DNA of 64,000 bases from Sulfurimonas sp. (GTDB taxonomy: Bacteria; Campylobacterota; Campylobacteria; Campylobacterales; Sulfurimonadaceae). The stretch lies in assembly GCF_028714975.1 (NCBI RefSeq), contig NZ_JAQTLH010000001.1, forward strand, positions 124,001-188,000, given 5' to 3'. The position numbers were made by a program, and so were the translations under genes. Below the pieces are notes generated by a model. The model saw nothing but the letters and a program-made list of their open reading frames with translations, did no database searches and was not told the DNA's origin. Numbering within the stretch: the stretch's first letter is position 1; the number at the start of each line of letters is the position of its first letter. This document shows, piece after piece, positions 17,514 to 21,522 of this stretch.

Positions 17514-18086
17514 ATGTTAGATCCAATTTTACTAAGAGTTGCAAAAAGTGCGATAATGCGTAAGTTTGATAGCTCGTACATATTTGACGAAAAAAATTTG
17601 CTTGAGGCTTATCCGCCATTAAAAAAAGAGGGCGCAGCTTTTGTGACGCTAAAATATGATCATCATTTACGCGGCTGTATAGGTTCCATCATCGCACATC
17701 GTTCATTGTACGAGGATGTAGTTAACAATGCTGTATCGGCTGCATTTAATGACCCAAGATTTCATCATCTGCATGAAAATGAACTTTCGCATATTTGGGT
17801 TGAAGTCTCCGTTCTTACCGAACCGGAAATCTTAGAGTATGAAGATTTTAATGATTTGCTTCAAAAAGTAGAGCAGGGTGTTGACGGGCTTATCATAAAA
17901 CACGATATATATCAGGGAACTTTTTTGCCTCAAGTTTGGGAGCAGTTAAAAACGCCTAAAGAGTTTTTGGAACATTTAAGTATGAAAGCGGGTTTAAGCC
18001 CGTCCGTGTATGACCTGCATCCCGCTATATATAGATATCATGTTGAAGCAATAGAAGAGAAATTTGATGATATATTGCCGCTATAG
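17514..18086 (+). CDS. amrA: AMMECR1-domain protein (AmmeMemoRadiSam system protein A)
   Basis: A 190-residue AMMECR1 domain protein with the conserved core LRGCIGSI near residue 50, NAVSAAFNDPRF, and WVEVSVLTEPE. In many prokaryotes this protein is coded beside a MEMO1 homologue (protein B, the next gene here) and a radical SAM enzyme (protein S), forming the AmmeMemoRadiSam set whose reaction is not known. No radical SAM gene is present in this neighbourhood. A spaced AAAGGAA ribosome site precedes the ATG. Confidence 0.9.
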   Translation: MLDPILLRVAKSAIMRKFDSSYIFDEKNLLEAYPPLKKEGAAFVTLKYDHHLRGCIGSIIAHRSLYEDVVNNAVSAAFNDPRFHHLHENELSHIWVEVSVLTEPEILEYEDFNDLLQKVEQGVDGLIIKHDIYQGTFLPQVWEQLKTPKEFLEHLSMKAGLSPSVYDLHPAIYRYHVEAIEEKFDDILPL

Positions 18087-18109
18087 CGATAAAATCGTAG
18101 GAGTGTAAG

Positions 18110-18898
18110 ATGAAACGAAAGATGAATGTAAGCGGTGCTTTTTATCCGGGAAGAGCCGTCGAGATTGAGAGATATTTTGAACACTTTAGTACAATCTATG
18201 ATGAAGACAGCGTTTTGCCGAATATAAAAAGCAAAATAGTCATAGTTCCCCATGCCGGTTATGTCTACTCCGGATACAGCGCAAATGTAGCTTATAGGGT
18301 ATTGCAAAAGAGCAGAGTGAAAAAGTTTGTCGTAATCGGACCGTCGCATAAAGTTGCGTTTGAGGGGATATCTCTATGTGCATTTAGCTCGTATGAAACT
18401 CCTTTTGGAGATATAGAGTGTTCGGACTTTTTACTGCAAAGCCTAAAGGAGCAGTTTGATCTTCCATGTATCTTGCAAGCGCATGTCGAACATAGTACGG
18501 AGGTTCAATTTCCTTTCATAAAACACTATATTGAAGATGCCCAGATAGTAGAGTTGGTATATTCGCAAGTTGAAGCCGAGGCGTTATCAAAAGTTATAGA
18601 TTTTGTTTTAAAACATGATGATTGCGGTGTTATCATAAGCAGCGATTTAAGCCATTTTTACACTCTTAGCAATGCAGCTAGGTTGGACAATATCTGTTTA
18701 GAAGCAATCAAAAAAATGGATACGCATACGCTTCATGAAGGGTGTGAGGCTTGCGGGATGACGGGTATTGAAGCACTGCTTATAAGTGTTAAAAAAAAGG
18801 GTTTAGCTCCTCTTTTGCTTGATTATAGAACCAGTGCGGATGCAAGCGGCGATATGCATAGAGTAGTCGGGTATGTAAGCGCATGTTTTTATGAATAA
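18110..18898 (+). CDS. amrB: MEMO1-family protein (AmmeMemoRadiSam system protein B)
   Basis: A 262-residue MEMO1 homologue, related to extradiol dioxygenase LigB. Visible signatures: SGAFYPGRA at the N-terminus, VPHAGYVYSGYSA (near 44-56), VIGPSHK, HSTEVQFPFI, SSDLSHF and CGMTGIEALL. Human MEMO1 binds metal with His/Cys residues at these places, suggesting a metal site here too. It follows the AMMECR1 gene by 23 bases and overlaps the cupin gene by 8 bases, so the three are one operon. Confidence 0.92.
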   Translation: MKRKMNVSGAFYPGRAVEIERYFEHFSTIYDEDSVLPNIKSKIVIVPHAGYVYSGYSANVAYRVLQKSRVKKFVVIGPSHKVAFEGISLCAFSSYETPFGDIECSDFLLQSLKEQFDLPCILQAHVEHSTEVQFPFIKHYIEDAQIVELVYSQVEAEALSKVIDFVLKHDDCGVIISSDLSHFYTLSNAARLDNICLEAIKKMDTHTLHEGCEACGMTGIEALLISVKKKGLAPLLLDYRTSADASGDMHRVVGYVSACFYE

Positions 18899-19253: not shown

Positions 19254-19301
19254 ATGACCAAAGGAAATGCCCTTGTGGTGCAAGTTTGGAATAAGGATTG
19301 A
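19254..19301 (+). other. Possible 15-codon leader ORF before the DUF475 gene
   Basis: ATG at 19254 opens a 15-codon frame ending TGA at 19299-19301, 4 bases before the TTG start I prefer for the next gene. It starts with the same codons (ATG ACC) as the leader ORF before the CNNM gene 1.1 kb on. It has no clear ribosome site, so this is weak. Confidence 0.25.
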
Positions 19302-19305
19302 TATA

Positions 19306-20340
19306 TTGAAACATTTTAGGCTCTCTTTTATTTTTACAATTATATGTTTGCTTATCGCCGGAGTGTGGGGGTATAAGTTTGGAGGTTTGGTTAACGCCGT
19401 AAATTTAATGTTTATAGCGTTGATTCTCGGACTTATGGAGGTATCTCTCTCTTTTGATAATGCCGTCGTAAATGCTTCTATCTTAAAAACTTGGGATGAG
19501 CATTGGAAAAAACTCTTCTTAACGGTCGGTATAGTGGTTGCGGTTTTTGGGATGAGACTCCTTTTTCCACTTGTGATTGTGGCTCAAACTGCTGATTTGG
19601 GACTTTTAGAAGTTTGGAACTTAGCACTTGATAATCCTGTAGAATATTCTAACAAGCTTGTTGCTCATCATGCCGAAATATCTGCTTTTGGAGGGATGTT
19701 TTTACTGCTTGTTTTTCTTAACTTTATGCTTGATGAAGAGAAGAGCGTTCATTGGTTTGAAGCGCTTGAAGAGAAGTTGGGATTGCTTGGAAAGATTGAA
19801 GCCATCTCTATTTTTATAGCGATTGTAATTTTAATGATTTTTAGCTCTTTTATTGGGCAAGAGAGCAAATTAGTCGTGCTAAGTGCGGGACTATGGGGGA
19901 TTGTTATATATGTAGGCGTTGATATTATCGGAGTTATTTTAGAGAAGGAAGAGGATGATCCTTCTCTTGCCGATGTTGTAAAAAGAGGGAGTGTAGGCAG
20001 CTTTTTATATTTAGAAGTTTTGGATGCATCTTTTTCTTTTGACGGCGTAATAGGCGCTTTTGCCATAACAAAAGATATAGTAGCCATTATGCTGGGTCTT
20101 GGAATCGGAGCAATGTTTGTGAGATCTTTGACTATATATCTGGTTGAAAAAGGAACGCTTGACGAGTATGTATATCTGGAACACGGTGCACATTATGCTA
20201 TAGGAATATTGGCTCTTATTATGCTCTTTGGTATGGAATTTCATATACCTGAAGTATTTACCGGACTTATCGGTATAGCTTTTATAGTGTTATCGTTATG
20301 GTCTTCGGTTAAAAAAATAGAGCTTGAAACAAAGCAGTAA
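19306..20340 (+). CDS. DUF475/TerC-like integral membrane protein
   Basis: A membrane protein of DUF475, related to TerC, with roughly nine hydrophobic segments. Residues such as SLSFDNAVVNAS (near 37-48 from the TTG) and LDASFSFDGVIGAF carry the acidic pairs in membrane segments typical of TerC-like metal or tellurium resistance proteins. I prefer TTG 19306 (344 residues), where AAGGAT is well spaced; an in-frame ATG at 19267 adds 13 polar residues and its ribosome site is almost touching. Substrate unknown; metal export is inference from the superfamily. Confidence 0.8.
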   Translation: MKHFRLSFIFTIICLLIAGVWGYKFGGLVNAVNLMFIALILGLMEVSLSFDNAVVNASILKTWDEHWKKLFLTVGIVVAVFGMRLLFPLVIVAQTADLGLLEVWNLALDNPVEYSNKLVAHHAEISAFGGMFLLLVFLNFMLDEEKSVHWFEALEEKLGLLGKIEAISIFIAIVILMIFSSFIGQESKLVVLSAGLWGIVIYVGVDIIGVILEKEEDDPSLADVVKRGSVGSFLYLEVLDASFSFDGVIGAFAITKDIVAIMLGLGIGAMFVRSLTIYLVEKGTLDEYVYLEHGAHYAIGILALIMLFGMEFHIPEVFTGLIGIAFIVLSLWSSVKKIELETKQ

Positions 20341-20351
20341 TTGAAATATGC

Positions 20352-20357
20352 TATAAT
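20352..20357 (+). promoter_or_regulatory. -10 box of the CNNM leader transcript
   Basis: Perfect TATAAT 30 bases before the leader ORF start, giving an expected transcript start near 20364 and a short 5' end before the leader ribosome site (AAGGA, 20374-20378). Confidence 0.6.
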
Positions 20358-20386
20358 ACTGCCATAAAAAATAAAGGAATTTTATA

Positions 20387-20449
20387 ATGACCCAAAGCGA
20401 CCCCGCCTCGCAAAGTTTTAACCATGCTGACATAGGAATGTGCCTATGA
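20387..20449 (+). CDS. 20-codon leader ORF coupled to the CNNM gene
   Basis: ATG 20387 has AAGGA 8 bases upstream and a TATAAT box before that. The frame runs 20 codons (begins MTQSDPASQS, ends ADIGMCL) and stops at TGA 20447-20449, overlapping the ATG of the membrane protein gene as ATGA. Because the SD and start of the large gene are in a hairpin, translating this leader would open it. I know no family for the peptide; its sequence may matter less than the act of translation. Confidence 0.55.
   Translation: MTQSDPASQSFNHADIGMCL
20431..20448 (+). promoter_or_regulatory. Hairpin hiding the ribosome site and start codon of the CNNM gene
   Basis: CATAGG (20431-20436) pairs perfectly with CCTATG (20443-20448) around a 6-base loop. 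The left arm holds the AGG of the ribosome site and the right arm holds the ATG at 20446. The leader ORF reads straight through it. Confidence 0.6.
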
Positions 20450-21522
20450 CACTATTGATAATTTATCTCTCAATCGCTCTCTTGATATCGTTTATGTGTT
20501 CCGGTTTGGAAGCAGTTTTACTCTCAAGCACCAATTCGTATGTTGAAAGCTTGTCTAAAGATCATAATGAAGATTTAGTCAACAAAATCAAAAGATTAAA
20601 AGCAGACATAGACAAACCAATCTCATCAATTTTAACAGTAAACACTTTTGCCCACACTATGGGTGCAGCAGGTGTAGGTGCTCAAGCTCAGATTGTTTTT
20701 GGTGATGAGTGGCAAACACTTATTGCTTTTATCGTGACGCTGCTTATATTATATTTTTCAGAGATTATTCCTAAAACATACGGTGTTTTGTATTGGAAAA
20801 AATTGCTGATTCCATCGGCTCATTTGATCTCGTTTTTAGTGGCTATTACTACGCCTTTTACATGGTTTTCTTCGTTTTTAACAAACTCTATTTCAAAAAA
20901 TAAAAAACATCAAAGCAGTTTTTCGCGAGATGAGATTATGGCAGTTGTTGCTCTGGGTGAAAAAGAGGGAACTATCCTTAGTAAAGAGAGTGACCTTATT
21001 GAAAATCTTTTAAAACTAAAAAATATTAAAGCTAAAGATATTATGACTCCAAGAAGTGTTGTTTTTGCTATGTCTGCTTCTACGACGATAGAAGATGCCA
21101 TAGAAGACGACCGAATGTATATCCATTCGCGTATACCTATTTTTAGGGAGACTCTTGATGATGTCGTCGGTATTGTTTTTAATCAGCGAATCCTTGAAGA
21201 GAGCAATGAAGATAATGACAATATTACTTTAGAGAGCATCTCGCATGAAGTGCATATGGTGTCTGAAAATCTTCCTGTTCCAAATCTTATAGACCAGTTT
21301 GTAAAACGAAAAACACACCTTTTTATAGTGTATGACAACTATGGACAAACGGTAGGCGTCGTTACTCTTGAGGATGCCATTGAGACTCTTTTGGGTGTTG
21401 AAATCGTAGATGAGATGGATGAGATCGAAGATATGCAGGTTTTTGCAAAAGATAGAAGCAAACAGTTTCAAGACCGTATGAAAATTGAGAGAAAAAAACT
21501 TGAAAAAGCTAAGCTTGCTTAG
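20446..21522 (+). CDS. CNNM/CBS-domain membrane transporter (CorC/HlyC-like)
   Basis: A 358-residue protein: CNNM transmembrane domain (about 1-170, four hydrophobic segments, SEIIPKTYG) then two CBS domains (DIMTPRSVVFAM at about 199, and a second near 265-320 with FIVYDNYGQTVGVVTLEDAIE). Relatives export or sense Mg2+ or other divalent metals. It lacks the C-terminal CorC_HlyC domain of longer members and ends in a charged helix. I chose ATG 20446 (AGGAA 7 bases upstream) over GTG 20440. It is preceded by an overlapping leader ORF and a start-sequestering hairpin, so it is probably controlled at translation. Confidence 0.88.
   Translation: MTLLIIYLSIALLISFMCSGLEAVLLSSTNSYVESLSKDHNEDLVNKIKRLKADIDKPISSILTVNTFAHTMGAAGVGAQAQIVFGDEWQTLIAFIVTLLILYFSEIIPKTYGVLYWKKLLIPSAHLISFLVAITTPFTWFSSFLTNSISKNKKHQSSFSRDEIMAVVALGEKEGTILSKESDLIENLLKLKNIKAKDIMTPRSVVFAMSASTTIEDAIEDDRMYIHSRIPIFRETLDDVVGIVFNQRILEESNEDNDNITLESISHEVHMVSENLPVPNLIDQFVKRKTHLFIVYDNYGQTVGVVTLEDAIETLLGVEIVDEMDEIEDMQVFAKDRSKQFQDRMKIERKKLEKAKLA

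What the first reader, a model, noticed from the sequence alone, without database searches (positions are those of the whole stretch)
20352..20460. Leader ORF and start-hiding hairpin before a CNNM transporter gene
TATAAT, a good ribosome site and a 20-codon ORF precede the gene; the ORF ends as ATGA on the transporter start. A perfect 6-bp hairpin holds both the transporter's ribosome site (left arm) and its ATG (right arm). Translation of the leader must open the hairpin. This is a compact translational switch, possibly responding to Mg2+ or to slow leader translation. I know of no described case for this family in this phylum.
Basis: partly seen in the sequence, partly recalled or inferred. 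Interest (0 to 1): 0.65.

Follow-up and report, generated by a model that had tools for sequence, protein, structure and literature searches.

The report
Conserved leader-ORF switch before CNNM transporter
A 20-codon leader gene that overlaps the start of a CNNM metal-transporter gene, and a hairpin that hides that gene's ribosome site, are kept together across many Campylobacterota and disappear together, so the transporter is very probably made only when ribosomes read through the leader, a control element not described before in this phylum.

Summary
Window 20387-20449 is a 20-codon ORF (MTQSDPASQSFNHADIGMCL*) with its own ribosome site and TATAAT. It ends as ATGA on the ATG (20446) of a CNNM/CBS transporter gene, whose SD and ATG lie in a perfect 6-bp hairpin. 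It is not chance. Sixty-three distinct leaders of 18-28 codons (nearly all 18-22) precede CNNM orthologs in Sulfurimonas, Sulfurospirillum, Sulfurovum and part of Arcobacteraceae. All have an SD and all end ATGA on the CNNM start. The leader profile finds confident hits nowhere else in 399 genomes of the order. The CNNM start region is far more structured than other genes (z -1.7 versus 0.0) and than leaderless CNNM orthologs (+0.3). The hairpin partner differs by clade: the ATG arm, CNNM codons 2-4 (with covariation), or leader codons. So occlusion of the ribosome site is kept although the base pairs are not. Codons 2-11 are conserved and acidic (62 of 63 leaders); the C-terminal half drifts. 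Best reading: cis-acting translational coupling, probably with a conditional checkpoint in the leader's first half. Mg2+-dependent ribosome destabilisation (MgtL-like) is plausible but untested. No expression data exist here. New variant of a known kind.

The parts
20352..20357 (+). TATAAT, likely -10 box of a promoter for leader plus CNNM
   Evidence: sequence; a -10-like hexamer lies within 60 bases of the leader ATG in 59 of 63 leader loci
20373..20378 (+). Shine-Dalgarno site of the leader ORF (AAAGGA)
   Evidence: sequence; SD present in 63 of 63 leaders
20387..20449 (+). leader ORF, 20 codons, MTQSDPASQSFNHADIGMCL*; codons 2-11 conserved, the rest variable
20431..20448 (+). hairpin CATAGG-AATGTG-CCTATG holding the CNNM SD and ATG
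   Evidence: arm-swap test in 37 close relatives p=0.024
20434..20437 (+). Shine-Dalgarno site of CNNM (AGGA)
   Evidence: sequence; kept in relatives
20446..20449 (+). ATGA overlap of leader stop (TGA) and CNNM start (ATG)
   Evidence: present in 63 of 63 listed leaders (GTG in place of ATG in two, L016 and L045); TGATG in L142
20446..21522 (+). CNNM (PF01595) + CBS transporter gene; the in-frame GTG at 20440 is not the conserved start
   Evidence: Pfam; PDB relatives: CorC and CNNM metal transporters; conserved ATG
19267..20340 (+). upstream DUF475/TerC-family membrane protein gene; neighbour in most Sulfurimonas loci only
   Evidence: neighbourhood comparison

Best explanation
A cis-acting translational-coupling switch. 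The CNNM ribosome site is folded away in the mRNA. A ribosome that initiates at the strong leader site and translates the 20 codons melts that hairpin as it reaches codons 15-20, ends at the UGA of AUGA, and either reinitiates on the overlapping AUG or lets a new 30S bind. Ribosomes that never start, or that stop or drop off in the conserved acidic first half (codons 4-11, upstream of the hairpin), leave CNNM off. Shown here by comparative genomics: the leader, its frame, the overlap, and occlusion of the start by interchangeable pairings. Inferred: coupling itself and the checkpoint role of the first half. Speculative: that the checkpoint reads cytoplasmic Mg2+ by ribosome destabilisation on early acidic residues, so that a putative Mg2+ exporter is made when Mg2+ is plentiful.
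For: All Sulfurimonas CNNM orthologs of 64% identity or more whose upstream DNA is held carry the leader. Order-wide there are 63 distinct leaders, all open, all with SD, all ending ATGA, with length changes in whole codons. The leader profile has hits at E<0.01 only directly before CNNM, and the one marginal partial hit that resembles the leader start (E 0.04) is a contig end. Leader and CNNM stay together while gene neighbours change. Start-region structure: MFE -6.85 with leader, -1.0 without; z -1.7 in both clade sets versus +0.28 (no leader) and 0.04 (other genes). In diverged clades the SD pairs with CNNM codons 2-4, and the wobble base of Thr2 changes with it (ACA with GUGU, ACC with GGGU, ACG with GCGU); swapping halves among sequences weakens folding in 10000 of 10000 shuffles. 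In L116/L117/L122 a 9-10 bp stem with the leader does the same job. Codons 2-11 differ 0.088/0.140/0.260 per codon position; the last six differ 0.437/0.363/0.411. Acidic residue at positions 2-8 in 62 of 63 leaders versus 36% of 201 genes; DPD/EPD in 23 versus 0. Arg codon AGA: 0 of 62 in leaders, 56% of Arg codons in the window.
Against: No transcript, ribosome or reporter data. A null that keeps peptides and SD and redraws synonymous codons pairs the SD nearly as much (0.70 versus 0.77), and for the window's own locus whole-region MFE is no better than null, so codon choice alone is only weakly tuned. Sequences are related, so shuffle p-values are optimistic; the Sulfurimonas-type arm test is weak (p=0.024). 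Two of the leaderless CNNM orthologs (L078, L137) still show some structure, and the leaderless set is AT-rich (GC 0.20), which the shuffle z-scores correct for only in part. The window's own leader has one acidic residue in its first half (SDPAS), not the D-x-D pattern. No EttA above cut-off was found in the genome, which is neutral.
Confidence: 0.8

Rival explanations
1. Plain constitutive coupling: the leader only sets CNNM dosage or ensures that the start is open on every translated mRNA, with no signal sensed. The conserved first half reflects leader initiation efficiency.
For: Coupling architecture is clear and no signal has been shown.
Against: Codons 2-11 are conserved in peptide and partly in nucleotides (Ser8 TCG in 36 of 36 close sequences; AGG counted 25 times in the 26 diverged leaders) while the second half drifts; simple coupling does not need a particular peptide.
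Confidence: 0.3
2. Mg2+-gated leader: early acidic residues (D/E-P/x-D) destabilise the ribosome at low Mg2+ as in MgtL; drop-off leaves the hairpin shut, so the exporter is made only at high Mg2+.
For: Acidic residue at positions 2-8 in 62 of 63; D-x-D, DPD or EPD in 32 of 63 versus 6.5% of genes. MgtL destabilising motif is EPDP (PMC11282234); MgtQ acidic residues control mgtB (PMC8092293). CorC and mgpA are induced by high Mg2+ and CorC carries such a sequence (PMC12421838). CNNM relatives in the PDB are Mg2+/Co2+ transporters.
Against: Half of the leaders, including the window's, have one acidic residue only; some (SHHCGDRRY, SLNCGDRCY) are barely acidic. Substrate of this CNNM is not known. 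No metal experiment.
Confidence: 0.3
3. Leader senses slow decoding (rare Arg/Ser codons such as AGG CGY or UCG CGU), that is charged tRNA or general translation stress.
For: AGA (commonest Arg codon) is never used among 62 Arg codons; AGG 25 times in diverged clades, CGU 17 times in the close clade. LeuL of C. jejuni uses rare Leu codons (PMC3847290).
Against: Only one or two such codons per leader, unlike the runs in amino-acid attenuators; the Arg is replaced by Gln, His, Cys or Val in several. A paused ribosome there would sit before the hairpin.
Confidence: 0.15
4. The leader encodes a micropeptide that acts in trans, for example on the CNNM protein.
For: Peptide-level conservation of residues 4-11.
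Against: 18-22 residues in nearly all, soluble, variable second half, always fused by ATGA to the gene, with hairpin and leader lost together.
Confidence: 0.06

Closest known systems
YoaL-YoaE (MgpA) of E. coli/Salmonella
   Same: leader ORF overlapping the start region of a CorC-domain cation transporter gene; leader start codon needed for full translation of the gene (as reported in PMC12421838)
   Different: YoaE has a TerC, not a CNNM, membrane domain; leader not compared in sequence here; no conserved start-occluding hairpin tested there; different phylum
MgtL and MgtQ leaders (mgtA, mgtB) with intrinsic ribosome destabilisation
   Same: short leader with acidic residues in the first ten codons; in MgtQ, translation of the leader decides whether a hairpin hides the start of a Mg2+ transporter (PMC8092293, PMC11282234)
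   Different: here the leader overlaps the gene (ATGA) and complete translation, not abortion, should open the start; target is a CNNM, probably an exporter; no Rho-dependent terminator element looked for or seen
LeuL/TrpL/MetL leader peptides of Campylobacter
   Same: leader ORFs in the same phylum (PMC3847290, PMC11955535)
   Different: those have several codons of the regulated amino acid and are proposed to act on transcription termination; here no such run and coupling to the start codon
Generic termination-reinitiation coupling at ATGA overlaps
   Same: ATGA overlap, occluded downstream ribosome site
   Different: upstream ORF is a 20-codon leader specific to this gene, with a conserved first half

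Membership tests
Leader ORF with translational coupling (kind of system) | translatable short ORF with start, SD and no stops, conserved in frame | tested here: met
   63 distinct leaders
Leader ORF with translational coupling (kind of system) | overlap or near contact of leader stop and gene start | tested here: met
   ATGA in all 63, TGATG in L142
Leader ORF with translational coupling (kind of system) | gene start occluded by RNA structure within the leader's reach | tested here: met
   predicted structure:
Leader ORF with translational coupling (kind of system) | gene translation falls when leader start is mutated | not testable with these tools
   needs a reporter
MgtL-like intrinsic ribosome destabilisation leader | acidic or acidic/proline repeat within the first residues | tested here: inconclusive
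   32 of 63 have adjacent or one-apart acidic residues; window leader has one only
MgtL-like intrinsic ribosome destabilisation leader | Mg2+-dependent ribosome drop-off | not testable with these tools
   needs in vitro translation or reporters
CNNM/CorC metal transporter family | CNNM membrane domain PF01595 followed by CBS pair | tested here: met
   no CorC_HlyC C-terminal domain was found by Pfam
Known Rfam riboswitch or leader | match to a curated covariance model | tested here: not met
   no match at E up to 1 in 20200-20600
Amino-acid attenuator (LeuL type) | run of codons for the regulated amino acid | tested here: not met
   no run in any leader

The most novel reading that the evidence does not exclude
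A Campylobacterota-wide family of CNNM leaders in which the acidic first half is a ribosome-destabilising Mg2+ sensor wired to a start-occluding hairpin in the opposite sense to MgtL: complete leader translation at high Mg2+ switches an exporter on. The leader would be ancestral to the group and lost several times, with the hairpin re-made by different base pairs in each clade.
Probability: 0.25. Interest if true: 0.75.

Novelty: new variant of a known kind. Interest (0 to 1): 0.56.

Why it matters
It is an unannotated regulatory gene conserved over an order of environmentally important bacteria and tied to one transporter. It offers a compact case in which occlusion of a start codon is preserved by selection although the base pairs that do it are replaced. 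If it reads Mg2+, it would show how a CNNM exporter is switched by translation, where regulation of CorC-type exporters is stated to be unclear even in Salmonella (PMC12421838).

Tried and rejected
Known riboswitch: no Rfam match. Chance ORF: rejected by conservation. Leader before other genes: a DNA pattern over 135 genomes and the peptide profile over 399 genomes give only CNNM-upstream sites at confident scores; a marginal hit in G559 is a contig end. A fixed stem GCGA...TCGC inside leader codons 4-9 was considered: base changes in relatives break it (by eye). Pairing of leader codons 2-12 with CNNM codons 1-7 was tested by arm swapping: p=0.82 in the close clade and 0.90 in the diverged clades; leader codons 2-12 with the ribosome site gave p=0.98 and p=0.03, the latter probably carried by L116/L117/L122. 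Amino-acid attenuation rejected for lack of codon runs. A trans-acting micropeptide considered unlikely. GTG 20440 as CNNM start rejected: ATG is the conserved start.

Full report
What is there. In the window a DUF475/TerC-family gene (19267-20340) is followed by TATAAT (20352), a ribosome site AAAGGA (20373), a 20-codon ORF (20387-20449) and a CNNM/CBS transporter gene whose ATG (20446) overlaps the ORF's TGA as ATGA. CATAGG (20431-20436) and CCTATG (20443-20448) form a perfect 6-bp hairpin holding the transporter's SD and ATG. The nearest named relatives are Sulfurimonas (96% identical CNNM).

Conservation of the leader. CNNM orthologs were collected from the genus, family, order (regions) and named genomes. 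In Sulfurimonas every ortholog of 64% identity or more with upstream DNA has the leader. In the order it is found in Sulfurimonas, Sulfurospirillum, Sulfurovum, part of Arcobacteraceae and two smaller families. Sixty-three distinct leaders have a start, an SD and no stops, and end as ATGA on the CNNM start (GTGA in two); lengths are 18-22 codons apart from one of 28. A further one (L142, MSDPYSRREVKP with TTG start) overlaps as TGATG. The leader profile has hits with E<0.01 only directly before CNNM, and a DNA pattern of the core occurs at most once per genome, only there. Neighbouring genes differ between clades (TerC and nitrilase in Sulfurimonas, an msrB-like gene and others in Sulfurospirillum, others in Sulfurovum), so the leader belongs to CNNM and not to an operon.

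What selection sees in the leader. In 36 close sequences, codons 2-11 differ by 0.088, 0.140 and 0.260 per pair at codon positions 1, 2 and 3; CNNM codons 2-20 by 0.281, 0.081, 0.556; the last six leader codons by 0.437, 0.363, 0.411. So the first half is constrained both as peptide and at silent sites, and the second half only in frame and in its ribosome site. Residue 5 is acidic in 55 of 63 leaders and at least one acidic residue lies in positions 2-8 in 62 of 63, against 36% of 201 control genes; adjacent or one-apart acidic residues occur in 32 of 63 against 6.5%, DPD/EPD in 23 against none. None of 62 Arg codons is AGA although AGA is 56% of Arg codons in the window.

Occlusion of the CNNM start. 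The 36 bases around the start fold with mean -6.6 (close) and -7.2 (diverged) kcal/mol, z about -1.7 against dinucleotide shuffles, while 161 other genes give 0.04 and 16 leaderless CNNM orthologs +0.28. In diverged clades the partner of the SD is CNNM codons 2-4, and the silent base of Thr2 follows the SD arm (ACA/GUGU, ACC/GGGU, ACG/GCGU); re-pairing halves between sequences weakens the fold in all 10000 shuffles. In one Sulfurovaceae group the partner is leader codons 10-13 with 9-10 bp. In the Sulfurimonas type the arm-swap test is weaker (p=0.024). A codon-resampling null that keeps both peptides and the SD shows only a small excess of pairing (0.77 versus 0.70), which I count as a caution: part of the pairing follows from the sequence constraints themselves. 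A tree of 80 CNNM proteins places leader types in clades and needs four changes for the leaderless label, the largest group being one Arcobacter clade; in that clade the start region is unstructured.

How it most likely works. Translation of the leader opens the start and couples CNNM to it. Because the conserved first half lies just upstream of the hairpin, it is well placed as a checkpoint: a ribosome that stops or falls off there leaves the start closed. The acidic residues recall MgtL and MgtQ (PMC11282234, PMC8092293), and corC and mgpA of Salmonella are induced by high Mg2+, with YoaL needed for full MgpA translation (PMC12421838). CNNM relatives of solved structure are Mg2+/Co2+ transporters. 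The Mg2+ step is inference only, and the window's own leader has just one acidic residue in that half.

Status. The sequence finding is solid. Coupling is very likely (0.8). The signal is open. Papers searched gave no description of this leader, within a library that lacks most subscription journals.

Noticed in passing
L130, L132, L134-L136, L138-L140 (Arcobacteraceae): CNNM lacks the short leader; its ATG instead overlaps (ATGA) the end of a longer upstream ORF of about 91 codons or more, and the start-occluding structure is gone.
   Followed up: partly
L029, L030, L031 and about 95 other genomes of the same genus: A CNNM of only about 45% identity replaces the leader-type CNNM; it has no leader and, in the three loci read, follows what looks like the end of an MgtE-like gene (not tested).
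   Followed up: partly
leader codons 8-10 in diverged loci, e.g. L062, L111, L118: AGG followed mostly by YGY (Arg then Arg or Cys) is nearly invariant at nucleotide level; no pairing partner or reason was found.
   Followed up: partly
L124: Possible decayed leader: MTRYRLYNLHLFKK* ends with TAA shortly before the CNNM ATG, without overlap or hairpin.
   Followed up: no
L060 (DZAZ01000006.1) and L047 (JAGDMU010000006.1): Records titled Helicobacter cetorum and Proteobacteria bacterium fall among Sulfurimonas/Sulfurospirillum-type sequences in the CNNM tree; their names are probably wrong.
   Followed up: partly
window 17514-18898: Two neighbouring genes that look like an AMMECR1 and a MEMO-like protein stand upstream in most Sulfurimonas loci (families from memory, not tested).
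   Followed up: no
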